Positions 3-16,125 of a stretch of DNA of 64,000 bases are shown one piece after another; the stretch's first letter is position 1; each line of letters opens with the position of its first letter. Source of the stretch: Archangium primigenium (GTDB taxonomy: Bacteria; Myxococcota; Myxococcia; Myxococcales; Myxococcaceae); NCBI RefSeq assembly GCF_016904885.1, contig NZ_JADWYI010000001.1:5270001-5334000 (forward strand), in the 5' to 3' direction. The position numbers and the translations under genes are program-made. The notes under the pieces are model-generated. The model was not told the origin of the DNA. It made no database searches and saw nothing but the letters and a program-made list of their open reading frames with translations.

Positions 3-638
3 GGCGAGCGGCTCGCCAGTGCCCGGCGGACCTTGCTGGAGGTGCGCCGCCTGCAGTCGCTTCGCTCCGACATGCGGGGCGGCATCTGTCCGCATCCCCA
101 CGCGTTCTTCGATCTGCTGCGCCGCCTCTACTTCGAGACGTGCTGCTATCTGGAGCAGGAGCCCGGCGAGACGCTCCCGGCCTATCTGCACGAGGACCTG
201 GGCCAGGGGTTGTGGGGCTGGATGGATCTGCTCAACCGCGTCTTCCGGCCCGAGGACACGCGGCTCACCTACAAGCCCTTCGAGCAGCGCGACGGGCAGT
301 TCGTGCTCTCGCCCCTGCCCGAGCTGGAGGAGGGCGCCTCGAGCGAGCTGTACCTGCTGGTGCGGGGCGCGGATCCCAACAAGCCCCCGTCCATGGAGGG
401 CGTGAAGGTGGCGAGCCCCGCGCGGCTGCCCACGGTGCGCCGACTGGCCCTCCGGGGCATCGCGTTCCAGCACGTGCCGCACACGTCCTTCCCGCACGCC
501 TTCGGTCCGGAAATCTCCTGGTACAAGCTGGCGATGGGCGAGGAGTGGCAGTTCGCCCAGCGCGACAACGGCATGGCCTTCTACGTCACCCCCGCGCTCC
601 AGGGCATGCAGGTCTTCCTCTTCTGGCGCAGGGCTTGA
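3..638 (+). CDS. tssK: T6SS baseplate protein TssK (C-terminal part, cut by window edge)
   Basis: The reading frame is open from the first bases of the window, so the true start lies to the left. The visible 211 residues resemble the C-terminal half of TssK, the trimeric adaptor that joins the type VI baseplate to the TssJLM membrane complex. Whole TssK proteins are about 440 aa, so roughly half is missing. The ATG at 33 is internal and should not be taken as a start. One base separates the stop from tssE, and the downstream operon (tssE, hub, tssF, tssL, tssM, tssJ) supports the call. Family assignment is from overall resemblance and context, not from one diagnostic motif. Confidence 0.8.
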   Translation, partial: GERLASARRTLLEVRRLQSLRSDMRGGICPHPHAFFDLLRRLYFETCCYLEQEPGETLPAYLHEDLGQGLWGWMDLLNRVFRPEDTRLTYKPFEQRDGQFVLSPLPELEEGASSELYLLVRGADPNKPPSMEGVKVASPARLPTVRRLALRGIAFQHVPHTSFPHAFGPEISWYKLAMGEEWQFAQRDNGMAFYVTPALQGMQVFLFWRRA

Positions 639-639
639 G

Positions 640-1035
640 ATGGCGCGTCCCTCGTTCCTCGACAAATTCATCCCGCCCGCCCATGGCTCGGACGCCGAGG
701 GGGAGCTGGTGCGCGTGCGGCAGAACCTGGAGTCCGTGCTCAACACCAAGGAGGGGTACGGCTACTTCGTCGAGGGCTTCGGGCTGGGTCGCTACACCGA
801 GCGCTTCGGCACCCGGGAGTTGATGCAGACCCTGACGGACGAGCTGCTGCATGTGGTGCGCCACCAGGAGCCGCGCCTGCAGGAGCCGGAGCTGGAGCTG
901 CGCGGCCGGGACTCCGGGTTGTGGTTGCACTTCGTCCTGACTGGCATGCTCCACGGCGCTCCGTGTACCCTGCGTCTTCTGTTTCACACCGTGAGTGGAC
1001 AGGTCCGGGTGGACGAAGAGGACGAGGAGCGTTGA
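640..1035 (+). CDS. tssE: T6SS baseplate wedge protein TssE (gp25-like)
   Basis: 131 aa, the usual size for TssE, the gp25-like wedge protein that links the baseplate to the first sheath ring. The middle shows the gp25-type pattern of an early 'GLGRYTERFGTRE' segment, a regular helix, then a C-terminal beta region 'LWLHFVLTGMLHG' and 'LRLLFHTVSGQVRV'. The start lies one base after tssK. Its TGA stop overlaps the ATG of the hub gene (TGATG at 1033-1037), so translation is probably coupled. Confidence 0.82.
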   Translation: MARPSFLDKFIPPAHGSDAEGELVRVRQNLESVLNTKEGYGYFVEGFGLGRYTERFGTRELMQTLTDELLHVVRHQEPRLQEPELELRGRDSGLWLHFVLTGMLHGAPCTLRLLFHTVSGQVRVDEEDEER

Positions 1036-2684
1036 TGGAGCGCGTCTTCCAGGATCGACTGGCGGTCAGCCTGACCCTGCGCATGGGCGGCAAGACCCAT
1101 GACATCGACGCGGGCCACCTCAAGCGCTTCACCCTGGAGCTGTCCAGCTGGGGGTTCGAGGGCGAGGTCGAGTTCGTGTTGACGGACAACCAGGCCAAGG
1201 GGGGCCAGGACAAGGACGTCCTGTTGCCGGACTTCCTCAAGCCCGACCTGGTCGAGGTGTCGCTCTCGCTGTCCGCCGTGCTCCCGGAGACCTCGGCCAA
1301 GCCCACCCACACCGCACTGGAGCTCAAGGGGCTCGCCACCGACAAGACGCTCGTGGAGGAGAGTGTCGCCACGGACGCCTCGGAGGTGGTGCTCCATCGG
1401 CGCTATGGGCTGCGCTTCCAGGACGCGGCGCGGCTGCTGTGGCGCCAGCACCACCCCTGCGCGCTCTACACGTCGAAGACCGTCCGGGACATCCTCGAGG
1501 AGCACAAGGGCGAGAAGATCGCGCTCGCCTACGATTGGGACGCGGGCCTCGGCGCCACGCACCCCATGCTCTTCGTGGGGCTGGAGCCCGGCAGTGGCAT
1601 CAGCTTCTATGACTGGGTGCTCTGGTACGTGCACGAGCACACGGGCGTGTTCACCTACGACTACGCCGCCCACGGCTACAAGTTCGCGGGCGCCAAGGAG
1701 GCCTCGGGCACGCCGATGGCGCTGCACGCGGACAACCTGGCCGGGCTGGAGGTGTTGCTGCCCGAGATCATCCGCCACGACGTGACGGTGCTCAACGCCA
1801 CGGCCGAGAGTCCCCAGACCCAGGTGGTGAGCCAGAAGAACGCCGTGACCGGCATCCGTCAGGACGTGCTGCTGTGCACGCCCATCGCGGACGAGATGCA
1901 GGCCCAGGTGAACCTGGAGACGGCGCGGCTCAAGGCGCGCGAGCCGGAGCTGGAGCTGGTGTGGCGCTCCTTTCCGGAGAAGGCCTTCACGCCCGGCGCG
2001 CTCGTCAAGCTGCCGGCGAGCGCGGCCTGGGGCGCCGCGGGCGTGGCCCAGGACGCCGTGCTGCGCGTGCGCGGCCTGCACCTGTGGGGCGAGGTGACGG
2101 AGGAGCAGGGGAGCGAGGAGGTGTACGGCGATGACGCCGCCCTGTTCACCTTCGGCATGTCGACCCGGCTGGAAGCCAAGGAGAATGCCCACGTGGAGCT
2201 GCCCGCCTGGCAGCCCCCGCGCTACCCCCGCTACGTGGAGGGCTTCATCGTCAGCGAGCAGGGCGACACCAAGGACGAGACGTGGCAGGCGTACACGGAC
2301 TCGGCCACGTCGCTGGACGGGTACAAGGTCAAGATTCCCCTCTTCGCCAACCAGATCATCCCCACGCCCTTCAACCCCAACCTGCTGCCGGGCCACTTCT
2401 ACTTCCCCGCCTACAAGGGTGAGCGGGTGTTGGTGGGGCTGGGGTTCCAGAAAGCGTGGATCAAGCGCTTCCTGGACTGGCGCGCGGGCGCGCGCATGCC
2501 CCAGGATGGGCAGGGCGTGCAGCTCTTGGTGGGCAAGACCCCGGAGAATGGCACCGCGCTCAAGCACTTCTACGCGGACGACAAGCCCGTGTTCCTCATG
2601 CAGCGCACCCACGACAAGGACACCCAGAAGATCCAGCTCAACGAAGGCACGCTGCTCATCCAGGTGAAGGAAGAGCCGTCGTAA
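1035..2684 (+). CDS. vgrG: VgrG-like T6SS hub protein without its own needle
   Basis: 549 aa. The start chosen is the ATG at 1035, which overlaps the tssE stop; the frame is open further upstream but that part lies inside tssE. Residues about 1-390 look like the gp27-type hub and residues about 400-545 like the gp5 OB-fold, with 'PGHFYFPAYKGERVLVGL' matching the usual VgrG segment before a beta-helix. Canonical VgrGs continue into a triple-stranded beta-prism; here the protein ends right after the OB region and the prism is encoded by the next gene. A diverged paralogue lies at 12749-14689. The role as spike hub is inferred from similarity and operon position. Confidence 0.75.
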   Translation: MERVFQDRLAVSLTLRMGGKTHDIDAGHLKRFTLELSSWGFEGEVEFVLTDNQAKGGQDKDVLLPDFLKPDLVEVSLSLSAVLPETSAKPTHTALELKGLATDKTLVEESVATDASEVVLHRRYGLRFQDAARLLWRQHHPCALYTSKTVRDILEEHKGEKIALAYDWDAGLGATHPMLFVGLEPGSGISFYDWVLWYVHEHTGVFTYDYAAHGYKFAGAKEASGTPMALHADNLAGLEVLLPEIIRHDVTVLNATAESPQTQVVSQKNAVTGIRQDVLLCTPIADEMQAQVNLETARLKAREPELELVWRSFPEKAFTPGALVKLPASAAWGAAGVAQDAVLRVRGLHLWGEVTEEQGSEEVYGDDAALFTFGMSTRLEAKENAHVELPAWQPPRYPRYVEGFIVSEQGDTKDETWQAYTDSATSLDGYKVKIPLFANQIIPTPFNPNLLPGHFYFPAYKGERVLVGLGFQKAWIKRFLDWRAGARMPQDGQGVQLLVGKTPENGTALKHFYADDKPVFLMQRTHDKDTQKIQLNEGTLLIQVKEEPS

Positions 2685-2729
2685 CAGGACAGCGGAGCCG
2701 CGGGCTCCCCACCCACGAGGCGAGGAACC

Positions 2730-3332
2730 ATGGGCAAGCTCGTCTGCACCGTCGAACTGGACAAGGAGAAAGGCGTCACCGTAAAGGTGGAGAACGCCGA
2801 TGATCAGATCACCCAGACGGTGGTGATGGACGGCACGAGCATCACCATCACGGTGAAGGGCTCCTCGGAGACGAGCACCTACGTCCAGAAGCAAGACAGC
2901 GTCACCATCACCTGCAAGGACTTCACCGTGGACGCCACCGGGACGCTCACCCTCAAGTCGCAGAAGGAGTCGAGCTGGACGAGCCAGGACACGCTGTCCT
3001 TGGAGAGCACCAAGGACATGGCCTTCACCTCCAAGGCCAAGCTCACCCAGAGCGCGACCCAGGACGCCAAGCTCACCTCCAACGCCAACGTGGCCGTGGA
3101 GGCCGCGTCCAAGCTGGACATGAAGGCCATGCAGACGAGCCTCACGGCCTCCGCGGGCGACAACAAGCTGGAGGGCGTCAACCTGAAGATGGCGGGCACG
3201 GCCCAGGCGGAGCTGTCCGCGCCCATGACCAAGGTGGCCGCGCAGGGCAAACTCGGGCTCGAGTCCTCGGGCCTCGCGGAACTCAAGGGCTCGATGACCA
3301 CCGTGGGTGGTTCGCTCGTGAAACTGGGGTGA
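2730..3332 (+). CDS. Separate beta-prism needle protein of the T6SS spike
   Basis: 200 aa made almost entirely of short alternating strands rich in Thr, Ser, Lys and Val, with recurring units such as 'SVTITCKDFTVDATGTLTL' and 'MAFTSKAKLTQSATQDAKL'. This is the pattern of the gp5/VgrG C-terminal beta-prism (DUF2345-like). It has no signal peptide, membrane segment or PAAR domain. It starts 45 bases after the hub gene with a good ribosome site (GAGGCGAGG before the ATG). I infer that it trimerises and docks on the hub encoded just upstream, forming a two-chain VgrG. It could instead be a spike-tip adaptor or cargo. Confidence 0.65.
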   Translation: MGKLVCTVELDKEKGVTVKVENADDQITQTVVMDGTSITITVKGSSETSTYVQKQDSVTITCKDFTVDATGTLTLKSQKESSWTSQDTLSLESTKDMAFTSKAKLTQSATQDAKLTSNANVAVEAASKLDMKAMQTSLTASAGDNKLEGVNLKMAGTAQAELSAPMTKVAAQGKLGLESSGLAELKGSMTTVGGSLVKLG

Positions 3333-3339
3333 GTGGGCG

Positions 3340-4989
3340 GTGAGCGACGCATCCGAACGCATCTACCTGGACTACTTGAACGAGCTGGACGCGCTCGAGC
3401 GCTTCCGGCAGCGCTTCCTGGAATCCCATCCCACCGTGCCCCTGGACCGGGAGGATCCGCATGTGCGGCGCCTCATCGAGTCCATGGCGTTCTTCTCGGT
3501 GCAGACCCGCCTGGCCACGCAGCACAACCTGCGCTCCACCTGGCTGCGGCTCTTCTCCTCCTTCTTCGACTTCCTGCTCAAGCCCCTGCCCGCGGTGGGC
3601 CTCGTGCAGGCCCTGCCCGCGGAGAAGATGACGGAGACGCTGGAGCTGGCGCGGGGCACCGAGCTGCGGCTGACGCCCTCGCATGGGGCGCCGGGCACGT
3701 TCCGCACCCGGCGCGCGCTGCGCGTGCTGCCCATCGCGCAGCAGGGCGCCGAGGTCGTCCGCCTGGCCGATGGCCGCTGGCGGCTCATCCTCCGCTACGC
3801 GTCCGCCTTTCCCCGGCGGGATCCCGTGGGCGTGTTCAGCCTGCACGTGCGCCACCTGGACGAGTACCGACCCTCGCTCGCCGTCTTCCACGCGCTGCGC
3901 CAGCACCTCAAACAGGCGAGCGTGGTGTACGACGCCCCGGCCAATGACGGCACGCAGGGCCTGCCGTGTGAGTTCGCCTTCGGCGGCAGCCCCCCGGAGC
4001 AGGAGGACTCGGCCCGCTACGAGCACCCCGTGCAAGCGGTGCGCTCCTTCTTCCAGATGCCCGAGCAGGGCCTCTTCCTGCACGTGACGGTGCCCTCGGC
4101 GCGCAAGGAGTGGAGCCGCTTCAGCCTGTGCCTGGACCTGGACCGCGCCTGGTCGGTCGGCCGCTCGGCGCATCCGGACTTCCTCCACCCCTTCGTGGTG
4201 CCCGTGGAGAACCTCAAGGCCGAGCCTGCCCAACCCATCAGCGCGGATGGCACCCGCTCGGAATACGCCATCCGGGGGATGTCCGCCGGCCGGGATTCCC
4301 AGCTGCACTCCATTACCGGGGTGTTCGTGCTGGGTCGCTCGGGGCGCATGCCCATGCGTCCGGCCTTCCTACCGGGCGAGGGGCCAAGCTACGAAGTGGA
4401 TGAGGGTCTCGACGAGGAAATGCGCCCGCGTCACAGTCTGCTCGTGCGCATGCCCGAAGCCTTCTCCGAGCCCAGCAAATTGTTGGTGGATGCCCTGTGG
4501 TACCAGCCCCAGTTCGTCTCCAACGCCGTGGGCCGGGTGACGGTGTCCACGCCGGGCCGACACGTGGAGGGGTTGGGGTGGCAGCTCGTGGGTCGGCTCC
4601 AGCCGCACCGGGACAGTGGCCTGCGCCATGACGTGGCGGGCCTCACGCGGCTGCTGGCCTGGAAGGTCAAGTCCACGCTCGAGCGCGATGAGCTGGCCGC
4701 GCTGCTCAACTACCTGGGCACGCCCGTCGAGGAGCCCTTCCGCCGCGTCCTGCCCTGGCTGCGCGAGCTCAAGGCCACGGTGGCGCCGGATGGGGCGCTG
4801 CGCGGCGCGGGCCTGCTGCACGTCTACGAGATCCTCCTGGAGCCCTTCGACGCCAGCGCCGAGCCCCTGGTGGCGTGTTTCCTGGAGCAGGTGCAGCGCC
4901 TGTTGAGTGCCTGGAATGGCGAGGCCACGGTGGTGCTGCGCGCCTCCGTGGCCGGGGCGGGTGCCTTTCCCCTGGCGGTCTCCTCATGA
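3340..4989 (+). CDS. tssF: T6SS baseplate protein TssF
   Basis: 549 aa with a GTG start at 3340, a few bases after the needle gene. The N-terminus has the TssF pattern: 'YLDYLNELDALERFRQRFLESHP', then 'DPHVRRLIESMAFFSVQTRLA' and 'LLKPLPAVGLVQ'. TssF with TssG builds the wedge of the baseplate. The protein is a little shorter than most TssF (580-620 aa) and its C-terminus is diverged. TssG normally follows TssF, but here tssL follows with an ATGA overlap, so tssG is elsewhere or unrecognised. Confidence 0.78.
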   Translation: MSDASERIYLDYLNELDALERFRQRFLESHPTVPLDREDPHVRRLIESMAFFSVQTRLATQHNLRSTWLRLFSSFFDFLLKPLPAVGLVQALPAEKMTETLELARGTELRLTPSHGAPGTFRTRRALRVLPIAQQGAEVVRLADGRWRLILRYASAFPRRDPVGVFSLHVRHLDEYRPSLAVFHALRQHLKQASVVYDAPANDGTQGLPCEFAFGGSPPEQEDSARYEHPVQAVRSFFQMPEQGLFLHVTVPSARKEWSRFSLCLDLDRAWSVGRSAHPDFLHPFVVPVENLKAEPAQPISADGTRSEYAIRGMSAGRDSQLHSITGVFVLGRSGRMPMRPAFLPGEGPSYEVDEGLDEEMRPRHSLLVRMPEAFSEPSKLLVDALWYQPQFVSNAVGRVTVSTPGRHVEGLGWQLVGRLQPHRDSGLRHDVAGLTRLLAWKVKSTLERDELAALLNYLGTPVEEPFRRVLPWLRELKATVAPDGALRGAGLLHVYEILLEPFDASAEPLVACFLEQVQRLLSAWNGEATVVLRASVAGAGAFPLAVSS

Positions 4990-5624
4990 AACTCGAGCAT
5001 TGGCAGAACATCCTCCGGACCTACCGGCAGGTGCGCGCCCTGTTGGATCAATCGCTGCCGCCCGAGCCCGCCTCGGCGCAGGAGCGCATCCAGGTCCGGG
5101 TGGGCGCGCAGGGCCTGGCGCTGTTGCAGCAGCAGCTGCTCTTCGACGTGGACGCCCTGCGCGCGGCGCTGGGGGCGGCCTACGGGGAGCAGGAGCTGGA
5201 GGAGGCGCTGCGGCCCTTCGTCTACCTCATCGACGAGAAGGTGCGGCGCCGGCTCGCGGACGAGGAGCAGATGGAGTGGCCCATGCTCCAGTTCAAGCTG
5301 TTCGGCACCGACGCGGGCGGCGATCGCTTCTACGAGCTGGCCGACGAGAAGCTGCAGCAGCGCACCGCCTCGGCGCTCGTCTTCGAGATGCTGCACTTCT
5401 GCCTCACCGCGGGCTTCGAGGGCCGCTACGAGGGCAACACCGCCCGGCTGCGCGAGTACAAGACGCGGCTGGCGGCGCGCATCCCCAAGCCCGAGGCCAT
5501 GCCGGCGCCGCCGCCCGTCGAGGCCCAGGCCCCGCTCGTCCATGCCTTTCCCTGGCGCTACTACGCGGCGTCCTCGCTGTTGGTGGTGACGCTCCCCGTC
5601 ATCCTGTGGTGGTTGTCGCGATGA
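4986..5624 (+). CDS. tssL: T6SS inner-membrane protein TssL (DotU family)
   Basis: 212 aa from the ATG at 4986, which overlaps the tssF stop. The cytoplasmic domain carries the DotU pattern, including 'LRPFVYLIDEKVRRRLADEEQMEWPMLQFKLFGT' and 'FYELADEKLQQR'. A single hydrophobic helix near the C-terminus (about residues 187-208, followed by WWLSR) makes it a tail-anchored inner-membrane protein, as expected for TssL. It has no C-terminal peptidoglycan-binding domain. Its stop overlaps the next start (ATGA at 5621-5624). Confidence 0.85.
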   Translation: MKLEHWQNILRTYRQVRALLDQSLPPEPASAQERIQVRVGAQGLALLQQQLLFDVDALRAALGAAYGEQELEEALRPFVYLIDEKVRRRLADEEQMEWPMLQFKLFGTDAGGDRFYELADEKLQQRTASALVFEMLHFCLTAGFEGRYEGNTARLREYKTRLAARIPKPEAMPAPPPVEAQAPLVHAFPWRYYAASSLLVVTLPVILWWLSR

Positions 5625-5932
5625 AGGACAAAGTGCAGACGACACGGGAGGCCCCCGGGGCCCGGGCCCAGCTGGCCCGCCTGGAGCAGCTCATCCACAC
5701 CGAGCTCGGGCGCTTGAGCGCGGGCGTGGTGCCCTTGCTGGACGAGGTGCGCGCGGGCGTGGGCGCGATCGAGCCGGAGGCGGGTGGCACCCGGCTGGCT
5801 CCCGCCGAGCACGAGGCGCGCCACGCGAAGCTGCTCGAGTCGCTGGAGGGTCTGGAAGAAGTGCTGGAGGCGCTCCAGCTGGCCGCGCGTTCGGGCCGCC
5901 CCGCCGCGGGCACGAGCCGGGGGGAGGGCTGA
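5621..5932 (+). CDS. Small helical protein of unknown function between tssL and tssM
   Basis: 103 aa, starting at the ATG that overlaps the tssL stop. The sequence is charged, has no signal peptide or membrane segment and looks helical, with heptad-like 'LARLEQLIHTELGRLSAGVVPLLDEVRAGV' and 'LLESLEGLEEVLEALQLA'. I do not recognise the family. Placement between tssL and tssM with tight coupling on both sides suggests a cytoplasmic accessory of the membrane complex. Confidence 0.7.
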   Translation: MKDKVQTTREAPGARAQLARLEQLIHTELGRLSAGVVPLLDEVRAGVGAIEPEAGGTRLAPAEHEARHAKLLESLEGLEEVLEALQLAARSGRPAAGTSRGEG

Positions 5933-5935
5933 ACC

Positions 5936-8900
5936 GTGGTATCGCCCCAAGACATCATCGTTTCCCAGGTGCTGGGCGCCGAGCCCACGCAGGCCCTGAG
6001 CTCGGGCGTCAAGGCGCTCAACACCGAGGTCACCGCCGTCAAGAGCAGCTTCACGGTGCTCCAGAAAATCTGGGCGCTCGTGGGGCCGGTGCTCCCGTGG
6101 GTGTTGCTCGCGCTCGTCGTGGGCCTCGCCGTCTTCTTCACCTGGAAGTTCTTCAAGCGTCGGCGCGGCGGCGGTCGGCCCGCGGCGGCCACCGAGAGCG
6201 GCCCGCCGCCCATGGACGGCCACCGTCTGGCCCAGGTGCGCAGCGCGTTCCTGTCCGGACTGCCGCTCGTCAACCGCGCCGCCGTGGTGGATCTGCCCAC
6301 CGTGGTGGTGTTCGGTCCGGCGGGCAGCGGCAAGACGCAGCTCATCGGCCTGGACGTGGACTGGCAGCGCCAGGCCCGCCAGTACCTGCCCAGCTACACG
6401 TCGGATCCCCTGCTGCAGGTCTACCTGGGGCCGGACTGCGTGGTGCAGGAGGTGTCGGCGCCCCTGCTCGAGGACGAGACGCTGCCGGCCCGCGCGGCCC
6501 TGCGCCGCATGTGGAAGCGCTGCTTCAGCCACCGGCAGAAGGGCATGGCCGTCATCGCCCTGGACGTGCGCTGGCTGTCCGATACGCCTCCCGACGAGCA
6601 GCGGCGCTACGCGCAGCTCCTGCGCGGCAAGCTCAACCTCATGTCCGAGGCCTGCGGCGGTCCCGTGGAGACGCGCCTGTGCCTGACGCACATGGACGGG
6701 CTGGAGGGCTTCGAGGACTTCGCGCGGCTGCTCAAGACGCACGGCGTGTCGCTCGCCTTCGACATCCCCAAGCGGGGTGAGGAGGACAGCCTGTCCTCGC
6801 TGCTGCAGGGCCAGGAGCAGTACCTCGCCCTGGGCCTCACCTCGCTGCCCGTGGATGCCTTCGAGCGGCTCGAGCACTTCTACTCGCAGGGGGGCCGCTC
6901 GTTCTCGGGCCTGGGCCGCTTCGTCACCGCGCTGCTCGAGGGAGACACGCTCTCGTTCAAGCCGCGGCTCACGCGCGTCTACCTGTCCTCGCTCACGCCC
7001 GAGGCGCGCGCCAGCGGCACCCTGTCCGTGGTGGCCGAGGCCAATGCCAACGAGGCGCTGCGCCGGCTCTACCTGAGCACCCACCTGCGGCGCGCCGCGG
7101 CGATCGCCGCCGTGTTCTGTCTGCCCGTGGTGGCCGCCTACGTGCACTTCTACCTGCTCCTGGGCGAGGCCCAGGACGAGGTGCAACGGCTCGAGGACAC
7201 CGTCTCCCAGCTGCGTGAGCAGGGCATCGAGGGCCGGGGCGAGGTGGTGGAGGAGCTGGTGAACCACGCCGCGGACGCGCTGCTGCACCTCAAGGGCGCC
7301 GAGCGCTGGTGGCCCCCGCTGCGCACCAGCTTCCCCCAGGAGACCCTGGCCCTGCGCCAGCGCCTGGCCACGGGCATCCGGGAGAGCCACCTGCGGCCCG
7401 CGCTCGAGCGCTGCCGCAAGAACCCCGAGGACTGCCGCCCCGAGCAGGTCGTCTACCTGCTGTCCACCCTGCATGCCTCCAACAAGGACGGGCTCGGCAC
7501 CTTCGTCAACTCCAGCCTCCACGTCCAGTCCTCGCGTCGGCACGTGATCGCCGCGCCGTCCGAGACGGCGGGGAGCACCACCGCGGCCAGCCGCACGTGG
7601 ATCTCCGCGCTCGACCTGAGCGAGCCGCTCATCGCCACGTACGTGCTCGCCAGTGACTCGCCCTGGGAGCGCAACCCGCCGTGTCGCAAGGACGCGACCG
7701 TGCAGCTGTCCGGCAACGAGGAGCCCTGGTCGTGCTGGCCCTTCACCGAGCGGCTGACGTTCGAGAGCCAGCTCAAGCCGTGGATGGAGCACTTCCTCTT
7801 CCTGCGCCAGGCCCTGGAGGCCAAGGACATCGCCCGCCTAGACCTGCGCCGCGCCGAGCGCGAGCGGCTGCAGGCGCAGCTGGCCGACCTGGACGTCTAC
7901 GCCTCGCTGTCCACCGTGCTCAACCTGTTCGACACGTCGAAGGTCCAGGTCAACACGCGGCACTTCCACGGCATCGAGACCACGGTGGACGTGCTCGCGT
8001 GGCTGCAGCGCAACCGCGAGACGCTCGCGGGCATCCTGCGCATGGAAGAGGAGGCCTACGCGGGCCTGCTCGCGGTGGAGAAGATGGGCCCCTCCGAGCT
8101 GCTCACGCGCGATGGGCTCTGGCTGCCCGGCAGCAACAAGGGCCCCTACCGCGTGGAGCTCCTGCAGCAGTCCTTCGAGTTCCGGCCGCCCCAGCTGTCG
8201 CGGGACCTGCTCCAGGCCCTGCTCGACACCCAGGATGCCAACGGGCGGCTCACGTTGAATGGCCAGGCCCCCATCCGTCCCGGACAGATGGTGCTCAGCC
8301 GCACGCCCTTCGAGACCGACCTGCGGCCCCTGGTGGACGAGTTCACCCAGCGGCTCAAGGACGCGCAGCTGCCCACGGAGGAGTCCGCCAAGCGCTCCCA
8401 GTACATCCGCAAGCGCGTGGACGTGTTCTCCCAGGGCTACCGCGATGGCCTCTTCTACAGCGTGCGCCACTACCGCTTCAGCGCCCCGCGCAAGCTGCTG
8501 CTCGATGAGCTGGGCCGGCTGTCCCAGCCGTCCTCCGAGCAGGTGGACATGCTGCGCGACGTGGCCGCGCGCGCCAACCTGGAGACGCTGGAGGGCCCCT
8601 ACTACGAGCCCCTGCGCAACGCCGTGGCCCCCTTCCGGCCCGTCGTTCAGCTGATGGTGGCCGACAAGAGCGGCTTCTACACGGCGCTCGCGCCCTATCA
8701 GGCCCTGGTGGCGCAGATGCGCGACGAGCTGGATGCCGGCTCCGCGCCTGGCGCCGTCAAGCCGGGCGCCGCGCCCGCCGCCAAGTCCGATGCCGAGGCC
8801 CCCGCGCCCGGCGCGGAAGGCACCAACGCCCAGCTCGCGGACCTGCTCTCGCCGCTGGAGAAGGTCGCCCTCGCCATGATGTTGGAGGAGGAGGGCTCCT

Positions 8901-9727
8901 ACCTGCGCAAGGCCCAGGCCTGGCTGGATCAGCAGGGCATCACGGGCGACCTGCGCCAGCCCTTCCTCGAGCCCTTCATCGCCGTGCAGAAGCTGGGCAA
9001 GGAGGAGCTGGAGAACACGCTCGCGCGCCAGTGGTCGGAGGCCTCCGGGCGCATGCTGCGGCCCCTGCTCACGCGCTACCCCTTCAACGCCAGCGCCAAG
9101 GAGGACGTGGATCCGAGCGAGCTGGAAGTGCTGCGGCGCAAGGACGGCGCCTTCTGGCACTTCGTGGACCAGGTCTTCTCCCGGGTGTGCATGGAGCGGG
9201 GCACCCAGTGGGCCCTGCGCGGCACCCTGCGCGACAAGCTGCAGCTGCCCGAGCCGCTGCTGCCCACCCTCAGTCAGCTCTCGCGCCTGTCCAAGCTGCT
9301 CTGGGACGAGGAGGGCCGGCCCCGGCCGCTGATGCTCAAGGTGCAGCCCCAGCCGCTGCCGCCTCCACCCATGCCGGGCGTCTTCGTCACCATGTCCTCG
9401 CTCAAGTGCGGCAAGACGACCGCCTACGGCTTCAACCAGAGCCCCACCTGGCAGGACTTCCCGCTCAGCTGGTGGGATCAGCAGGTGTCCTCCATCGTGC
9501 TGGAGTTGCGCTCGCCCGCGCGCGATGATCCCAAGTTCCTGTCGTTGCCCTGGAACCGCTCCGTGTGGAGCTGCTTCCGTTTGTTCGAGGAGGCCCTGGT
9601 GACGTCGGATCAACGGCGGCAATGGAGCCTGGTGTTGCAAGGAAACAACGTGAGCAAGCGGGGCGTGGAGATTGGCTTCGGACTCAAGGGCGACCCGTGG
9701 ATGCCCTTCCGCGAGGTGCCGCGATGA
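5936..9727 (+). CDS. tssM: T6SS inner-membrane protein TssM (IcmF family)
   Basis: 1263 aa from a GTG at 5936. TssM spans the periplasm and anchors the secretion channel with TssL and TssJ. A membrane helix lies at about residues 50-72, followed by a cytoplasmic domain with a Walker A motif GPAGSGKT at residues 127-134. A second membrane helix lies near residues 383-408, then a long periplasmic region. The end ('SCFRLFEEALV...GFGLKGDPWMPF') matches the TssM C-terminal beta domain that contacts TssJ. An Ala/Pro/Gly-rich linker lies near residues 940-965. I see two membrane helices where many TssM have three. The stop overlaps the tssJ start. Confidence 0.9.
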   Translation: MVSPQDIIVSQVLGAEPTQALSSGVKALNTEVTAVKSSFTVLQKIWALVGPVLPWVLLALVVGLAVFFTWKFFKRRRGGGRPAAATESGPPPMDGHRLAQVRSAFLSGLPLVNRAAVVDLPTVVVFGPAGSGKTQLIGLDVDWQRQARQYLPSYTSDPLLQVYLGPDCVVQEVSAPLLEDETLPARAALRRMWKRCFSHRQKGMAVIALDVRWLSDTPPDEQRRYAQLLRGKLNLMSEACGGPVETRLCLTHMDGLEGFEDFARLLKTHGVSLAFDIPKRGEEDSLSSLLQGQEQYLALGLTSLPVDAFERLEHFYSQGGRSFSGLGRFVTALLEGDTLSFKPRLTRVYLSSLTPEARASGTLSVVAEANANEALRRLYLSTHLRRAAAIAAVFCLPVVAAYVHFYLLLGEAQDEVQRLEDTVSQLREQGIEGRGEVVEELVNHAADALLHLKGAERWWPPLRTSFPQETLALRQRLATGIRESHLRPALERCRKNPEDCRPEQVVYLLSTLHASNKDGLGTFVNSSLHVQSSRRHVIAAPSETAGSTTAASRTWISALDLSEPLIATYVLASDSPWERNPPCRKDATVQLSGNEEPWSCWPFTERLTFESQLKPWMEHFLFLRQALEAKDIARLDLRRAERERLQAQLADLDVYASLSTVLNLFDTSKVQVNTRHFHGIETTVDVLAWLQRNRETLAGILRMEEEAYAGLLAVEKMGPSELLTRDGLWLPGSNKGPYRVELLQQSFEFRPPQLSRDLLQALLDTQDANGRLTLNGQAPIRPGQMVLSRTPFETDLRPLVDEFTQRLKDAQLPTEESAKRSQYIRKRVDVFSQGYRDGLFYSVRHYRFSAPRKLLLDELGRLSQPSSEQVDMLRDVAARANLETLEGPYYEPLRNAVAPFRPVVQLMVADKSGFYTALAPYQALVAQMRDELDAGSAPGAVKPGAAPAAKSDAEAPAPGAEGTNAQLADLLSPLEKVALAMMLEEEGSYLRKAQAWLDQQGITGDLRQPFLEPFIAVQKLGKEELENTLARQWSEASGRMLRPLLTRYPFNASAKEDVDPSELEVLRRKDGAFWHFVDQVFSRVCMERGTQWALRGTLRDKLQLPEPLLPTLSQLSRLSKLLWDEEGRPRPLMLKVQPQPLPPPPMPGVFVTMSSLKCGKTTAYGFNQSPTWQDFPLSWWDQQVSSIVLELRSPARDDPKFLSLPWNRSVWSCFRLFEEALVTSDQRRQWSLVLQGNNVSKRGVEIGFGLKGDPWMPFREVPR

Positions 9728-10242
9728 GCCTCCGCGTGGGGCTCGTCGCCCTGGCGGCGCTCGTGCTGGGCGCCTGTGGGCCGAGTCGGATCAACCTGAG
9801 CATCAAGTCGCCCGTGGGCACCAACATGGGCCGGCCCCTGTACATGCTCGTGCGCCAGGTGGACCCCAAGCAGTACGCCAACGAGGCGTACTCCGAGGTG
9901 GCCTCGCGGGTGGGCTCCCCGGACGAGACCGTGCTGCAGACGTCCGTCATCTACCCGGGCACCATCCAGCGCTTCCAGGTGAAGGCGCCCAAGGATGGCT
10001 CGGTGGCGGTGTCCTTCCTCTTCACCGCGCCGGACGGCAACTGGCAGCTGCTGCTCAGCCCGCCCCTGTCGCGCTCGGTGGACGTGGAGCTGGCCACGAG
10101 CCGCATCCTGCGCGAGTCGATCTCCCAGGAGGACGCCAAGGAAGAGGCGCCCGCCGCGCCCGAGGGCAAGGCCCCCGAGGCCAAGGCGCCCGAGGGCATG
10201 AAGATGCCCGAGCTGCCCAACCCCCTGGGCGGCAAGAAGTAG
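9724..10242 (+). CDS. tssJ: T6SS outer-membrane lipoprotein TssJ
   Basis: 172 aa from the ATG at 9724 overlapping the tssM stop. A lipoprotein signal ends in the lipobox LGAC with Cys18. The mature part shows the TssJ transthyretin-like beta pattern ('LNLSIK...' then 'PLYMLVRQVDPKQY' and 'VAVSFLFTAPDGNWQLLLSPP'). The last 40 residues are a low-complexity Pro/Ala/Glu/Lys tail. TssJ tethers TssM to the outer membrane. It ends the plus-strand T6SS operon; one base separates it from the convergent coiled-coil gene. Confidence 0.82.
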   Translation: MSLRVGLVALAALVLGACGPSRINLSIKSPVGTNMGRPLYMLVRQVDPKQYANEAYSEVASRVGSPDETVLQTSVIYPGTIQRFQVKAPKDGSVAVSFLFTAPDGNWQLLLSPPLSRSVDVELATSRILRESISQEDAKEEAPAAPEGKAPEAKAPEGMKMPELPNPLGGKK

Positions 10243-10243
10243 C

Positions 10244-12499
10244 TCAGCCCCCCAGCGCCCGCACCTGGGCATGGAGGGCGTCCATCACCGCGCCCACCTG
10301 GGTGCGGGCCTGCTCCACCACCGGCGAGAAGGGATCGAAGTCCCGCAGGGACGCCTCCAGGGCGTCCACGGGCGCGAGCAGCTGGTTCTTCGCCGCGTCC
10401 ACCTGACCCGTCATCGCGTCGATGCGCTGGGACGCCGTGTCCACCACGCCCCCGGCGCGCTCCACGAAGGTGGCGAGCAGCTGCTCGATGCGCCGGGCCA
10501 GCTCGGCCTCGAGCCGGACGCGGGCCTCGCGCGCCTGCGCCAGCGCCTGATCCACCGCGGTGCTGGCCGCGTCCAGGCCCGTCTTCACCTGCTCGCGCGC
10601 CGTGGCCACCTGTTGATCGATCGTCTGGCCCACGGTCTCCACCTGTTGCATCGCGGCCTTCACGCCCGTGTCCAGGTTCTCTTGGAGCGTGGTGAGCTGC
10701 TCGGACACGTGCTGCTTGAGCGTGTCCACGCGCGCGACCACCTGCGCCTCCAGCTTCTCCACCTGCTGGGTGACCTGATCGCGCGCGGTGGCGATCTGCC
10801 GCGTCACCTGCGCCACCAACTGCTCCAGCTGCCCGAGCGCTTGATCGATCCCGCTCTGCACGGACTGGGTGAGCGTCTGGATCTGCTGCACGAGCTGCTG
10901 CTTGAGCGCGTCCACCTGGGCGAGCGCCTGGGACTGGAGCTGCTCCACCTGGGTGATGAGCTGGTCCTGCAGCGCCGTCATCTGCTGGCTCACCTGCTGG
11001 GTGAGGGTGCCGAGCTGGGTGGAGATCTGCTTCACCACGTTGTCGATGGCCGCCATGGCGGGCTTGACCAGGGCCTTGGGCAGGTCCGACGCGGGGATGG
11101 CGTCCAGCATCTGCACGGCCTTGGACAGCAGGGACTCCAGGGTGCCCACCAGGTTCTTGAAGAGCGTCTGGAGCTGCTCGAGCTTCTCGGGCAGGGCGGA
11201 GAAGACGGCCATGAGCTGCTTCTCCAGCTGGGCCACCGTGTCCATGAGGCTGTCGAGCACGGCGAAGGTGGCGTCGATCGTCTGGCGGATGGGGGACTTG
11301 ATGGACTCGACGGTGAGCAGCGCCGTCTTCATCAGGGCCTCCACGGCGCCCACGCCCTGGGTGATGACCGAGTCGATCTGCTCGCCCACCTGGGTGATGA
11401 GCTTCTCCACGGCCTCGATCTGCCCGAGCAGCGCGCGCACGGGCGTGCCCAGGGCCTGCTCCAGCGTGTCCAGGGCCTGATTGAGGCTCTTGCCGCCCGT
11501 CTCCAGGGTGGTGCCCACGGTGGTCTCCAGGGTCGCCAGCGTCTGGTCCACCGTCTGCGTGGCCCCCTCCAGCTGCGTCTTCACCGGGACGAGCGTCGCG
11601 CGCAGCTGGGCGATGCGCTCGCGCACCTCGGCCTTGGACGTTTCTCCGGTGGATTGGATCTCGTCATGGAGGCCTTGCAGGGTGTTCGCGGGCACGGCGA
11701 GGGTGGTGTCCAGCACCCCGAGCAGCCGCTGGGTCTCCGCCTGCACGGTCTCGCGCGCCTTGGCCGTCTTGCCGAACACCTGATCCGTCGCGGCGGTGAT
11801 CGTCTGGCTGGCGCCGCGAATCCGCTGCGCGACCTGGGTGCCCCCCGCGTCGAGCAGCTCGCGCAGCTGCTTCTCCCGCGCGGCGATCTGCTCCTCGAGC
11901 GCGCGCAGCTGCGCGTCCGCCTGGGCGCGGGCCTTCTGGAGCTGCTCGCGCGCGAGCGTCTCCGGCAGGCGCACCTTGCGCGTCTCCTCGTCCATCCGGG
12001 CGCGCACCTTGCGCAGCTCCTCCAGGGCCTGCTCCGCGTGGGCCTGGAGCGCCGCGTCCTGGGGGTTCTGCTTCGCCTTGGCCTTGACCCGGGCGTGCTC
12101 CTCCTCGTAGCGCTTCTCCAGCTCGAGCAGGGGCGCCTGGACCTTCTTCACCTCCTGCTCCACCCGGGTGGTGACCTGCGCCAGCTCCGCCTCGAGCTTC
12201 TTCTGGGCGGCGTCGAGCAGGGCCTCGAGGCCCTGCTTGCGCTGGTCGAGCGCGGCCTTGCCCTCGTCCAGCAGGGCCTCGCAGCGCGACTTCACCTCCT
12301 GGGTGAGGCCGTCGAGCTGCTGGGAGAAGGCCTGCTGCTTGCCCTTGACCTGCTGCTCGAGCGCCACGCAGCGCGTGGACACGGCGGGCTCCAGGGAGGC
12401 CACCGTGGCGCGCACCTTGCCCGCGGGGGCCTGCAGCTTCGCGCGAAGGGCGAGCACGTCCCCGGCCGTCTTGTCGAACTGGCTCCACAGGGCCTTCAT
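10244..12499 (-). CDS. Very long coiled-coil protein linked to the T6SS
   Basis: 751 aa, nearly all predicted helix, with continuous heptads dominated by Gln, Ala, Leu, Val, Lys and Glu. There is no signal peptide and no catalytic motif I can see. Recurring blocks of the form 'QVxxQVEKLEAQVxARVDTLKQ' fill residues about 430-690. Shape and composition recall tape-measure or apolipoprotein-like rods. The ATG at 12499 abuts the stop of the 74-aa coil gene with no gap, and both follow a VgrG-like gene. A structural accessory or exported cargo of the VgrG2 spike is my inference; function is not established. Confidence 0.7.
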   Translation of the reverse strand: MKALWSQFDKTAGDVLALRAKLQAPAGKVRATVASLEPAVSTRCVALEQQVKGKQQAFSQQLDGLTQEVKSRCEALLDEGKAALDQRKQGLEALLDAAQKKLEAELAQVTTRVEQEVKKVQAPLLELEKRYEEEHARVKAKAKQNPQDAALQAHAEQALEELRKVRARMDEETRKVRLPETLAREQLQKARAQADAQLRALEEQIAAREKQLRELLDAGGTQVAQRIRGASQTITAATDQVFGKTAKARETVQAETQRLLGVLDTTLAVPANTLQGLHDEIQSTGETSKAEVRERIAQLRATLVPVKTQLEGATQTVDQTLATLETTVGTTLETGGKSLNQALDTLEQALGTPVRALLGQIEAVEKLITQVGEQIDSVITQGVGAVEALMKTALLTVESIKSPIRQTIDATFAVLDSLMDTVAQLEKQLMAVFSALPEKLEQLQTLFKNLVGTLESLLSKAVQMLDAIPASDLPKALVKPAMAAIDNVVKQISTQLGTLTQQVSQQMTALQDQLITQVEQLQSQALAQVDALKQQLVQQIQTLTQSVQSGIDQALGQLEQLVAQVTRQIATARDQVTQQVEKLEAQVVARVDTLKQHVSEQLTTLQENLDTGVKAAMQQVETVGQTIDQQVATAREQVKTGLDAASTAVDQALAQAREARVRLEAELARRIEQLLATFVERAGGVVDTASQRIDAMTGQVDAAKNQLLAPVDALEASLRDFDPFSPVVEQARTQVGAVMDALHAQVRALGG

Positions 12500-12724
12500 T
12501 CAGGGCTCCAGCTCCGCGAACTCGGCATCCAGCGCGTCGATCTTCCCGGCGAGCCGCTGGCCCAGGCCCGTCACCTCGGGGCGCAAGGCGCCCAGGGCCG
12601 CCACGAGCTTGCCCGACAGGCCGTCCACGCCCGTGCGCAGGGCCGTCACCTGGGCCGTCATGCCGGTGTGGAAGGACTCCAGTTCTCCGCGCAGCTCCGC
12701 TACCTTGCCGCTCAATTGCCGCAT
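12500..12724 (-). CDS. 74-aa coiled-coil protein
   Basis: Starts at an ATG (12724) 24 bases after the VgrG-like gene and ends exactly one base before the ATG of the 751-aa coiled-coil gene. The protein is one amphipathic helix set ('MRQLSGKVAELRGELESFHTGMTA', 'LGQRLAGKIDALDAEFAELEP') that resembles the repeats of the larger neighbour. It may be a chaperone, a partner, or a separated head of the larger protein. I do not recognise a family. Confidence 0.6.
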   Translation of the reverse strand: MRQLSGKVAELRGELESFHTGMTAQVTALRTGVDGLSGKLVAALGALRPEVTGLGQRLAGKIDALDAEFAELEP

Positions 12725-12748: not shown

Positions 12749-14689
12749 CTACCGCAGTTTCTCCAGTGAGGCCTTGGCCGACGCCGCCGCCGCCGCGAGC
12801 TCACCCGTGCCCTGGTCGAGCCGCGCCGCCGCGCCGTTGAGGGTGCCCTTGGCCTCGGCCACCTTCGCGCCCACTTCCTTGCGCGCGCCACTCAAGGCCG
12901 TCTTGGCCTCCGCCTGGGCGCTCTTCATCTTCGCCCGCGTGGCGCCCATGGCCCCCTGGTAGGCCGTGGACGTCATCCCGATGGACTCGCCCACGGACGC
13001 CGTGAGGTCTCCCTTGGCGGCCTGCACCTGGGGCGAGACGTCATAGGTGGGCGTGGGCGCCGCCGAGGCCTCGCTCTCCTTCACCTGGATGAAGAGGTGG
13101 CCCTCGCCCATGCGCACCACCTGGGTGTCGCCCCCGGAGGTGCGCAGCATGCGCCAGACGGGCTTGTCGTCCTGGAAGTCGTGGGTGAGCGCCGTCTGGC
13201 TCTTCTTGTTCTGCCCGAGGAGGATCTGATCCCCCTGGCCGTCCTGCGGGGGCCGCACGCCTTCCTTCCAGTCCAGGAAGCGCAAGAGCTCGGCGCGCTC
13301 GTGGTGCAGCGCCACCAGGACCCGGGTGTTCTTGTAGGGCGGGAAGAAGAACTGCCCCGGGAAGTGGATGGGCTCGGCGAGCACGCTCACCGTCTTGTTC
13401 CACAGCGGCACCGTCATCCGGAAGGAGTGGATGGAGGTCTTCTCGTCCTCGGAGATGAGGTAGCGCCGGTCCTCGGGTTCGCCGCCCGGGCTGTGCACCA
13501 GGCCCTCGACGTGGATGGGGTAGCGGGGCGCGCGAAAGGCGGGCAGGGCGACGGCGGGCTCCGCCGCGGATTCCAGCTCCAGGGCCACGCGCGTCTGGAA
13601 GGTGGCGCTGGGGTTGGCCTGGCCCGCGTGCTGGCCCTCGTCGTCCGCGCGCGCCTCCAGCTCCACTGTCTGCACGCGCAGGTCCTCGTCCCGGCCCGTG
13701 AGGCCCGCGGCCCAGAGCGGGCCGGTGAGCTGCAGGCGCGCGCCCGGAAACACGTTCACGGGCGGGAAGTCCTTGAAGGCGAGCTGGTAGCGGGGCTGCC
13801 GCACCTGGAGCCGCGTCTTCTCCTGCTTCTGCCGCGCCTCGGCCCGCGTGGCGAGCGGCTCGCGCAGGAGCACGTCATGGGAGACGCCCGCGACGGCCTG
13901 GGGCTGCTCGAGCGCCTGGGTGGTGGGCGCGGCCGCCAGGGCGTTGAGCACCCGGGTGCCGTGCCGGATGGGCGCGGGCACGTGCACCCGCAGGGACTGG
14001 ACGGACAGGGGGCTCAGGTTCGCGGGCTGCCCCTCGGCGGGCTTGCTGTCCGTGAGCAGGTACTGGTTCTTCTGGGAGTCGTAGGTGAAGACGCCCTGGT
14101 GGGTGTGCACGTACCAGAGCACGAAGTCGTAGAAGCTCACCCCCGGCGCGTCCGCGCCCAGCGCGAGGCAGAAGAGCGGCTGCTTGATCTTGAGCGTGGC
14201 CCAGTCGAGCGACAGCTGGAGCGAGGCCTTGTGCGCCTCGAGGATCTCCGCCATCGACATGTCGGTGTGCAGCTCGGTGGGCCGGTGCTGGCGCCAGAGC
14301 ACCTGGGCGGGGTCGGCGAACTCCACCGTGTAGCGGCGGAAGACGCGGGCCTCGCCCTTCAAGGCCCCGTGGGTCTCCGCCTGGAGCCGACGGCCGCGCA
14401 CGAGCCCCCGCAGGACGAGGGGCGCGGGGGGCGGCTCCGCCTGGGGCCGGGCCTCGGACACGGCCAGCCGCACCTCGATGAGGTCCGGCTTCTGGAAGGC
14501 GAGGAAGAGGGGCGCGTCCTTCTTCTCCATCGTGGTCCAGAAGGTGAGCGACGCGCTGAAACCATGGGGGGCCATGCGCGCGGACACGTGCTTCACCTGT
14601 CCGCCCGGGATGGTGAAGGACTGGCCACCGGACGTGAGGGACAACTCCCATCGGAGTTCCTCTTGGAATGGCGTACTCACCGGGTGCAC
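12749..14689 (-). CDS. Second VgrG-like hub protein with a helical C-terminal tail
   Basis: 646 aa from a GTG at 14689; a GTG at 14680 (giving 'MSTPFQEELRWELSL') has a better placed AGGGGG ribosome site and may be the real start. Residues about 1-545 align along their length with the hub at 1035-2684: both share 'LLWRQH', 'SFYDxVLWYVH', 'GVFTYD', 'RYPxxVEG' and 'FFPxYKxxRVLV'. Instead of a beta-prism it ends in about 100 residues of Ala/Lys-rich helix ('AKMKSAQAEAKTALSGARKEV'). The helical tail and the two downstream coiled-coil genes suggest a spike whose cargo binds through coiled coils. That role is inference. Confidence 0.68.
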   Translation of the reverse strand: MHPVSTPFQEELRWELSLTSGGQSFTIPGGQVKHVSARMAPHGFSASLTFWTTMEKKDAPLFLAFQKPDLIEVRLAVSEARPQAEPPPAPLVLRGLVRGRRLQAETHGALKGEARVFRRYTVEFADPAQVLWRQHRPTELHTDMSMAEILEAHKASLQLSLDWATLKIKQPLFCLALGADAPGVSFYDFVLWYVHTHQGVFTYDSQKNQYLLTDSKPAEGQPANLSPLSVQSLRVHVPAPIRHGTRVLNALAAAPTTQALEQPQAVAGVSHDVLLREPLATRAEARQKQEKTRLQVRQPRYQLAFKDFPPVNVFPGARLQLTGPLWAAGLTGRDEDLRVQTVELEARADDEGQHAGQANPSATFQTRVALELESAAEPAVALPAFRAPRYPIHVEGLVHSPGGEPEDRRYLISEDEKTSIHSFRMTVPLWNKTVSVLAEPIHFPGQFFFPPYKNTRVLVALHHERAELLRFLDWKEGVRPPQDGQGDQILLGQNKKSQTALTHDFQDDKPVWRMLRTSGGDTQVVRMGEGHLFIQVKESEASAAPTPTYDVSPQVQAAKGDLTASVGESIGMTSTAYQGAMGATRAKMKSAQAEAKTALSGARKEVGAKVAEAKGTLNGAAARLDQGTGELAAAAASAKASLEKLR

Positions 14690-14730: not shown

Positions 14731-16125
14731 TCAGCCGCGCAGCGGGACGGTGAATTCGAGCCGCAGGAGCGTCCCGGCGAGCTCCGGCCGCAGCGCGGCG
14801 CGCAGGTGCAGGCCCCGCCCGCCGCCACCCGTGGGCACCACCTGTCCCCCCAGCTCACAGCCCGCGCCGGGAGTGCCCCCGGGCAGGAACGCCGCCGCGG
14901 CCCGGGCGCAGACGGTGGAGACCTCGTCCGGGGTGGCCTGGGCCGGCAGGCGCTCGGACACCTCCAGGGCGAGCCGCACGAGGCGGCCGGTGAGCACCTG
15001 GGCCGGCAGGAGCGTCACGTCCCGGCCCGCGTGCAGGGTGGGCGCCGCCAGGAGGCCCACCTGATCCGAGTCCGGCCAGCCGCTCACCCCCAGCAGGCCC
15101 CGGGCACGCAGCCGCTCCTGCTCCCGCAGGGACAAGGCCACCTCCGTCCCCGTGGGGGCGCCCGTGCCCCGCGTGCCCTTGGCGGGCGCGCGCAGGCCCC
15201 GACCCGGCCCCACCATGTGCGCGAGGCTGCGCGTGTCGCGGAAGCTCGCCGCCAGCATCGCCGCCACCGCGAACACCGGACTGGCCAGACAGGTGCTCCG
15301 CACGGTGCCTCGCCGCTCCGCCCGCATCACCACCGGGTTGACGGCGGCACACACCCAGCGGGAGGCCTCCTCGGCCCGGAGCGCGCTCCAGCCGCCCGGA
15401 TCGTCCGCGTCCAGGGGCAGCCCCACCACCAGGGGCACCGAGGCGCTCTCGCCCAGGGCCGCCAGGCGCGCGAGGGACTCGGGACGCGCATCCGCCTCCA
15501 GCAGGAAGCAGGCGTCGGGCAGGAGCAGGGGCGGCCCGTCCAGGCTCGCGGCGAGGGCCTCCTCCAGCCGGGAGGGCGCCACGTCGAGCACCTCCAGATC
15601 CATGCCCGTGCCGGGAGGACAGTGGCTCGCCAGCCAGTGCAGGCCCCGCCAGGCGGACTCCAGCCGCGCCACGAGCGGGTGGTGGAGCAGATCCTCCGCG
15701 GTGGCGTGGATCGCCTCGTCGATCACGGCGAGCGCGGCGCGCCGGGCCTCGGCCGCGGACCCGCGGACCTGCCGCAGCGCCTCGGCCAGCCGCCCCGTGC
15801 CCACGGTGGCCTGGAGCCGGGCGGCCTCCTCGGGGGCCAGGGGCCGCGTGCCCGAGAGCGCCTCGCGCAGCGCGCCCAGGGCCCTCAGGTCCGGCTGGGA
15901 CGCGAGGATCGCCTCGAGCGAGAAGTCCTCCAGGCGCTGGAAGGACAGGGGGTAGGGGCTCGCGTCCCCCGCGCCGAGGCGGTCGGCCACGGTGACGGAC
16001 ACATCCCGCGCGGCGAGCGCGAGCCGCTCGCCGAGGCCGTCCGCGGAGACGGTGAAGCGCTGGCCCGTGGGCTCGGGGTGGAACGCTCCCACGACGAGCC
16101 AGCGCAGCCGGTGGGCGGTGCTCAC
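14731..16125 (-). CDS. T6SS sheath-like protein: TssB-like and TssC-like domains in one chain
   Basis: 464 aa from a GTG at 16125. Residues about 1-95 match the TssB pattern, ending in 'FQRLEDFSLEAILASQPDLRALGALRE', close to the TssB motif around DFxPEAVxxQVPxLxxLxxLR. Residues about 120-460 match TssC, including 'LVARLESAWRGLHWLASHCPPG' (TssC: LExxWRGLxxL). TssB and TssC are normally separate genes of about 170 and 490 aa. Many conserved TssC positions are lost, so this may be a baseplate-to-sheath adaptor or a sheath terminator and not the main sheath. The start overlaps the aroG stop. Confidence 0.68.
   Translation of the reverse strand: MSTAHRLRWLVVGAFHPEPTGQRFTVSADGLGERLALAARDVSVTVADRLGAGDASPYPLSFQRLEDFSLEAILASQPDLRALGALREALSGTRPLAPEEAARLQATVGTGRLAEALRQVRGSAAEARRAALAVIDEAIHATAEDLLHHPLVARLESAWRGLHWLASHCPPGTGMDLEVLDVAPSRLEEALAASLDGPPLLLPDACFLLEADARPESLARLAALGESASVPLVVGLPLDADDPGGWSALRAEEASRWVCAAVNPVVMRAERRGTVRSTCLASPVFAVAAMLAASFRDTRSLAHMVGPGRGLRAPAKGTRGTGAPTGTEVALSLREQERLRARGLLGVSGWPDSDQVGLLAAPTLHAGRDVTLLPAQVLTGRLVRLALEVSERLPAQATPDEVSTVCARAAAAFLPGGTPGAGCELGGQVVPTGGGGRGLHLRAALRPELAGTLLRLEFTVPLRG

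What the first reader, a model, noticed from the sequence alone, without database searches (positions are those of the whole stretch)
1035..3332. A two-gene VgrG: hub/OB protein and beta-needle encoded separately
In known T6SS spikes the gp27-like hub, gp5 OB-fold and beta-prism are one polypeptide. Here the hub ends after the OB region and a 200-aa protein of needle-like repeats follows as its own gene. The split means needles could be exchanged or loaded separately, as in phage and eCIS spikes. The two parts are seen in the sequence; their assembly is inference.
Basis: partly seen in the sequence, partly recalled or inferred. Interest (0 to 1): 0.7.

Follow-up and report, generated by a model that had tools for sequence, protein, structure and literature searches.

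The report
Francisella-type two-protein T6SS spike in myxobacterium
This soil predator makes the spear tip of one of its type VI "harpoons" from two separate proteins, a base and a needle, as the pathogen Francisella does; so the split is real but not unprecedented, and it reveals a Francisella-like harpoon that is widespread in harmless myxobacteria.

Summary
The split is real. A 549-aa hub (1035-2684) and a 200-aa needle-repeat protein (2730-3332) are separate genes, each with its own start, inside a complete T6SS cluster. In 195 Myxococcota genomes I found 53 adjacent hub+needle pairs and no fusion. In the paralogous cluster of the same genome the two genes lie about 8 kb apart in opposite operons. 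The hub's only PDB sequence match is Francisella PdpA (E=5.9e-7), and the best fold matches to its partial model are PdpA. The cluster also has an IglI-family protein, an IglG-like PAAR, an IglE-like TssJ and a sheath closest to IglB. This is therefore a T6SS-ii-like system outside Francisella. Exchangeable needles are not supported: hubs outnumber needles (2:1 or 3:2 in 50 of 53 genomes), because a second hub with a helical tail and a coiled-coil neighbour, but no needle, is conserved. Three-plus-three assembly is inferred, not shown; the needle model failed (pLDDT 33) and the OB fold was not confirmed.

The parts
1035..2684 (+). hub1: gp27-like / PdpA-like spike hub, 549 aa, ends without a needle
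   Evidence: PDB profile hit PdpA E=5.9e-7 (66); Foldseek top hits 6u9e/g/f E 1e-10 (64); VIA Z 12.9 to PdpA (65)
2685..2729 (+). intergenic stretch with own ribosome-binding site (GAGG 2722-2725) of the needle gene
2730..3332 (+). needle: 200-aa beta-prism-like protein with repeats of 8/16/24 residues, short-VgrG-like
   Evidence: eCIS spike 4.4e-5, VgrG 7.1e-5; DUF2345 in 9/21 members, best 7.7e-9; Francisella VgrG 0.02/0.016; period
3..638 (+). TssK, C-terminal part (gene starts upstream of window)
640..1035 (+). TssE (gp25-like)
3340..4989 (+). TssF
4986..5624 (+). TssL/DotU
5621..5932 (+). conserved small protein of the operon, unknown
5936..9727 (+). TssM (start may be 5969)
9724..10242 (+). 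TssJ, IglE-like lipoprotein
   Evidence: IglE_N 9.9e-30; NF041245 8.5e-9
12749..14689 (-). hub2: second hub (39% identical), 646 aa, no needle; about 95-aa helical tail instead
10244..12499 (-). 751-aa helical/coiled-coil protein that always follows hub2 (with 74-aa ORF 12500-12724)

Best explanation
The two genes encode the two halves of the central spike of a Francisella-type (T6SS-ii-like) type VI secretion system in a myxobacterium. The hub (PdpA-like, gp27 fold) would form the trimeric adaptor between the tube/baseplate and the needle. The needle protein (short, VgrG/gp5-C-like) would form the trimeric beta-prism seated on it, capped by the IglG-like DUF4280 PAAR protein encoded upstream (L014:14224-14583), and the assembly would be fired by sheath contraction. 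Shown: separate genes, conservation of the split, sequence and fold relation of the hub to PdpA, prism-like repeats of the needle, T6SS-ii marker genes in the same cluster. Inferred: trimerisation, 3+3 docking, secretion, and any role of the second, needle-less hub as an alternative or cargo-carrying hub using the same needle.
For: Hub profile (25 sequences) against all PDB sequences: PdpA E=5.9e-7, the only hit at E<=1 (6.4e-4 with 5 sequences). Foldseek of the partial model: three PdpA entries first (7.9e-11 to 1.6e-10), then eCIS spikes, VgrG1, T4 gp27; VIA Z 12.8-12.9 over 203-215 residues to PdpA. Needle profile: eCIS spike All3320 4.4e-5 and VgrG 8gra 7.1e-5, both in their C-terminal parts; DUF2345 up to 7.7e-9 in 9 of 21 homologues; the single sequence finds Francisella VgrG first, E=0.02. 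A weak needle match falls on residues 604-723 of a one-piece VgrG, beyond its GPD, OB and gp5 trimerisation domains. Cluster: IglI family 9.7e-79, IglG-like PAAR 8.4e-16, IglE-like TssJ. Sheath TssC closest to IglB: 499 bits against 440 or less for all others; in the canonical cluster of the same genome IglB is the worst match. Split in all 53 adjacent pairs, and hub and needle unlinked in the paralogous clusters of about a dozen genomes.
Against: The needle model failed (mean pLDDT 33), so the prism is not shown structurally. Needle matches are weak, and designed beta-propellers scored as well as the eCIS spike (4.1e-5), so beta-repeat composition alone can give such values. Hub model confident only in parts (mean pLDDT 48.6); the C-terminal third that should hold the OB fold and the needle seat is not modelled. 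Shallow profile-profile comparison with the genome's own VgrGs gave nothing. The Hcp-like gene matched neither Hcp nor IglC. NCBI's IglG and IglE models are hit below their curated cut-offs.
Confidence: 0.85

Rival explanations
1. A normal one-piece VgrG gene broken by a stop codon or a sequencing error.
For: In the window hub and needle are in the same reading frame, separated by one stop.
Against: All 53 adjacent pairs in the survey are split; the spacing is out of frame in 29 of 53; own ribosome-binding site in 29 of 30; in the paralogous clusters the genes are 7-8 kb apart on opposite strands.
Confidence: 0.01
2. The 200-aa protein is not the needle but a secreted beta-repeat cargo or adhesin carried by the hub.
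For: Weak, composition-driven matches and a failed model; beta-repeat proteins of other kinds also score.
Against: Conserved length of about 198-218 aa and one copy per system, always with TssE/TssF or TssK/TssL genes; period of 8/16/24 as in VgrG prisms; DUF2345 and eCIS/VgrG matches; no other needle candidate in the cluster.
Confidence: 0.08
3. The complete orphan VgrGs at 5.499-5.503 Mb serve this system, and hub/needle are accessory.
For: They are complete (GPD, OB, gp5 C-terminal) and carry no T6SS genes beside them.
Against: A canonical T6SS (TssA-M, ClpV) at 4.14 Mb lacks a VgrG gene and is their natural user; hub and needle sit inside the structural operon; the hub resembles PdpA, not GPD-type VgrG.
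Confidence: 0.05

Closest known systems
Francisella T6SS-ii spike PdpA-VgrG (PDB 6u9e/6u9f/6u9g)
   Same: Hub and short needle are separate gene products; hub related by sequence (E=5.9e-7) and fold; same IglI, IglG-like, IglE-like and IglB-closest sheath partners.
   Different: Hub 549 aa against 820; the match starts near PdpA residue 164-213, so PdpA's N-terminal part has no counterpart here. Hub and needle genes adjacent here. TssE, TssF and a weak TssG are recognisable here. A second, needle-less hub exists. Non-pathogenic predator.
Phage T4 gp27 + gp5 (and Mu/P2-type hubs)
   Same: Hub and prism on separate chains; gp27 fold (Foldseek E 6e-5, VIA Z 10-10.6).
   Different: In gp5 the OB fold lies on the needle chain and a lysozyme is inserted (own knowledge); the 200-aa needle here has no room for both.
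Canonical T6SS-i VgrG
   Same: Same role and overall fold of hub; needle repeats of 8/16/24 residues.
   Different: One polypeptide with GPD, OB and gp5 C-terminal domains; none of these Pfam models hits the hub.
Split vgrG loci of Acinetobacter (PMC6838775)
   Same: Separate N- and C-terminal VgrG genes in a T6SS.
   Different: Described there as separate VgrG domains in some Acinetobacter strains; sequences not compared here.
eCIS spikes (All3320, AlgoCIS, PVC, Afp8)
   Same: Needle and hub folds similar.
   Different: One polypeptide and no TssJLM membrane complex.

Membership tests
Francisella-type T6SS (T6SS-ii) | Spike made of PdpA-like hub and separate short VgrG | tested here: met
Francisella-type T6SS (T6SS-ii) | IglI present | tested here: met
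   NF041244 E=9.7e-79, 265 bits over cut-off 100; also cluster c and G187
Francisella-type T6SS (T6SS-ii) | IglG-type PAAR (DUF4280) | tested here: met
   PF14107 1.7e-33 over cut-off; NF041248 8.4e-16, below its curated cut-off; only copy in the genome
Francisella-type T6SS (T6SS-ii) | IglE lipoprotein as TssJ | tested here: met
   PF22361 IglE_N 9.9e-30 over cut-off; NF041245 8.5e-9 below cut-off
Francisella-type T6SS (T6SS-ii) | Sheath closest to IglA/IglB | tested here: met
   TssC profile: IglB 499 bits, next 440; control cluster a: IglB lowest. No tree with references was built
Francisella-type T6SS (T6SS-ii) | No ClpV in the cluster (ClpB used) | tested here: met
   none seen among the genes called in 5250001-5284689 and around cluster c; distant cluster G187 carries a ClpB-like ATPase, 1093 bits ClpB against 785 ClpV. 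Which ATPase works with this cluster was not tested
Francisella-type T6SS (T6SS-ii) | IglC as tube protein | tested here: inconclusive
   Hcp-like alignment matched neither Hcp nor IglC chains
Canonical T6SS-i VgrG | GPD hub, OB and gp5 prism in one polypeptide | tested here: not met
   no Pfam GPD/OB hit in 25 hub homologues; separate genes
Extracellular contractile injection system (eCIS) | No TssJLM membrane complex; one-piece spike | tested here: not met
   TssJ, TssL, TssM in the operon
gp27-like hub fold | Tandem beta-barrel hub fold | tested here: met
   Foldseek E 1e-10 to 6e-5 against PdpA, eCIS, VgrG1, gp27; Z 10-13, on a partial model, residues 5-396
OB-fold in the hub | OB domain between hub and prism | tested here: inconclusive
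   no Pfam hit; C-terminal region below pLDDT 50

The most novel reading that the evidence does not exclude
A Francisella-type T6SS in predatory myxobacteria has one shared needle and interchangeable hubs: a plain hub, and a second hub that carries a helical tail and a 456-751-aa coiled-coil partner as cargo or as a replacement for the beta-needle. The exchangeable unit of the spike would then be the hub, not the needle.
Probability: 0.25. Interest if true: 0.75.

Novelty: new variant of a known kind. Interest (0 to 1): 0.5.

Why it matters
The reviews and papers read here tie T6SS-ii to Francisella, a dangerous pathogen. A related machine in harmless, culturable myxobacteria (53 of 195 sampled Myxococcota genomes carry the hub) would let its spike, its PAAR-like tip and the role of IglI be studied safely, and suggests that this subtype is not a pathogen invention. 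The extra needle-less hub makes testable whether spike hubs, rather than needles, are swapped. In the papers found here only the single T6SS cluster of M. xanthus is described for myxobacteria; most subscription journals were not searchable.

Tried and rejected
Single-sequence Pfam, NCBIfam and PDB searches of the hub: nothing; homologues were needed. AF2 of the needle with 4 sequences: pLDDT 33, useless, so no fold search was made with it. hhalign of hub and needle against two-sequence VgrG or eCIS profiles: no signal above decoys. Hcp-like proteins against PDB: only chance hits. Hub and IglI on plasmids and hub on viral contigs: no relatives. Broken-gene artefact: rejected. Tape-measure role for the coiled-coil protein: considered; the hub2 tail is at the tip-side end of the chain and T6SS sheaths are far longer than 68-113 nm (own knowledge), so not adopted. 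Hub tree: hub1 is one clade; whether all hub2, including the distant one, share one origin is not resolved because of long branches.

Full report
What is in the sequence. The window is G000:C1:5270001-5334000 of a 9.5-Mb genome whose nearest named relatives by this gene are Archangium. Its first 10 kb is a T6SS operon: TssK end, TssE, hub, needle, TssF, TssL, a small protein, TssM, TssJ. The hub ORF runs 1035-2684 and overlaps the TssE stop; the needle ORF runs 2730-3332 with its own GAGG and ATG.

Is the split real? Profiles of hub and needle were run over 195 Myxococcota genomes. There are 116 hubs and 66 needles; 53 needles directly follow a hub on the same strand after 13-65 bp, none fused, and the spacing is not kept in frame (24/21/8 for the three frames). 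A Shine-Dalgarno core stands before the needle in 29 of 30 genomes (24% background). In the second cluster of this genome (8.47-8.49 Mb) hub3 lies between TssE and TssF on one strand and needle2 between TssK and TssL on the other; the same arrangement recurs in other genomes. So the two are independent genes.

What the hub is. Alone it matches nothing. A 25-sequence profile against all PDB chains gives exactly one hit, Francisella PdpA, E=5.9e-7. The AF2 model is partial (residues 1-130 and about 300-395 usable), yet Foldseek ranks the three PdpA entries first (about 1e-10), then eCIS spikes, VgrG1 and T4 gp27. The structural aligner gives Z about 13 to PdpA; other gp27-like hubs score 10-13, so that aligner supports the fold, not PdpA in particular. 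The part after residue 396, where the OB fold and needle seat should be, is not modelled with confidence.

What the needle is. It has repeats spaced by 16 and 24 residues (z 3.8), the same family of spacings (8/16/24) as the C-terminal prism of the genome's canonical VgrG. Nine of 21 homologues match DUF2345, a domain of VgrG C-termini (own knowledge), best 7.7e-9. The profile matches the C-terminal parts of an eCIS spike (4.4e-5) and of a T6SS VgrG (7.1e-5); the single sequence matches Francisella's short VgrG first (0.02). Designed beta-propellers score equally, so these are supportive, not decisive. A weak hit (E 1e-4) in another myxobacterium falls on the C-terminal repeats of a one-piece VgrG. 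The AF2 monomer model failed, which is no surprise for an intertwined trimer.

Which system it belongs to. The cluster upstream of the window carries an IglI-family protein (9.7e-79), an IglG-like DUF4280 PAAR protein, TssB, TssC and a divergent TssG-like protein (weak, E 0.019); TssJ is IglE-like. The TssC profile is closest to IglB (499 bits against 440) while TssC of the canonical cluster at 4.14 Mb is farthest from IglB. A distant phylum member (G187) has the same set plus a ClpB-like ATPase in the cluster; Francisella uses ClpB for sheath disassembly (PMC5924787). These are the marks of T6SS-ii. In that system the spike is known to be PdpA plus a short VgrG (PMC5924787; PMC9600919, citing Yang et al. 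2019). The two-gene spike is thus what one expects of this subtype, not a new invention. The premise that T6SS spikes are always one polypeptide was mistaken; split vgrG loci are also reported in Acinetobacter (PMC6838775).

Where complete VgrGs come in. Two complete VgrGs lie at 5.499-5.503 Mb with no T6SS genes around them. The canonical cluster at 4.14 Mb (TssJ-K-L-M, TagF, TssA-B-C, Hcp, TssE-F, ClpV) has no VgrG gene, so they most likely serve it. This pairing is inference.

Exchange of parts. The counts point the other way: hubs to needles are 2:1 in 37 genomes, 3:2 in 13 and 1:1 in 3. The extra hub (hub2, window 12749-14689, minus strand) lies about 9 kb downstream on the opposite strand. 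It has the hub core plus about 95 residues of Ala/Glu/Lys-rich helical tail, is never followed by a needle, and is followed by a 456-751-aa coiled-coil protein in all 14 Myxococcaceae loci examined and, by its ORFs, in G187. I propose, as inference, that hub2 is an alternative hub that shares the single needle and carries the coiled-coil protein.

Mechanism, with status of each step. Hub trimer on the baseplate: inferred from homology. Needle trimer seated on hub: inferred from order, repeats and the PdpA-VgrG precedent. DUF4280 cap: inferred. Firing by sheath contraction: inferred from the presence of the T6SS core genes. Non-fusion and separate starts: shown by sequence.

Limits.

Noticed in passing
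window 12749-14689 (-) and 10244-12724 (-): Second hub with helical tail, followed by a long coiled-coil/apolipoprotein-like protein; arrangement conserved in all 14 Myxococcaceae loci examined and in the distant genome G187, never with a needle.
   Followed up: partly
window 14731-16125 (-): 464-aa protein next to hub2 that looks like a fused, shortened TssB-TssC (VipA match at 24-91, VipB match at 131-194 only); a similar ORF lies at L103:562-1977.
   Followed up: no
L014:5706-12470 and L018:11454-20000: Giant proteins (2254 and at least 2849 aa) of HYDIN/ASH Ig-like domains flank the two T6SS-ii-like clusters.
   Followed up: no
L014:12477-14156, L017:9545-11230, L089:15943-17664: Protein of about 560-573 aa, similar at the N-terminus to AMP-binding enzymes (weak Pfam match in the first), kept beside the T6SS-ii-like clusters, also in the distant genome.
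   Followed up: no
G000:C1:5499000-5502700 (L015, L016): Divergent pair of orphan complete VgrGs, far from any T6SS cluster.
   Followed up: partly
L019 and L020: Two further contractile-injection-like clusters with one-piece spike proteins (538 and 491 aa).
   Followed up: no
L017:18324-18974 and L017:19049-19693, plus L014:18778-19353: Tube-like (Hcp-position) proteins that match neither Hcp nor IglC; cluster c has two of them.
   Followed up: partly
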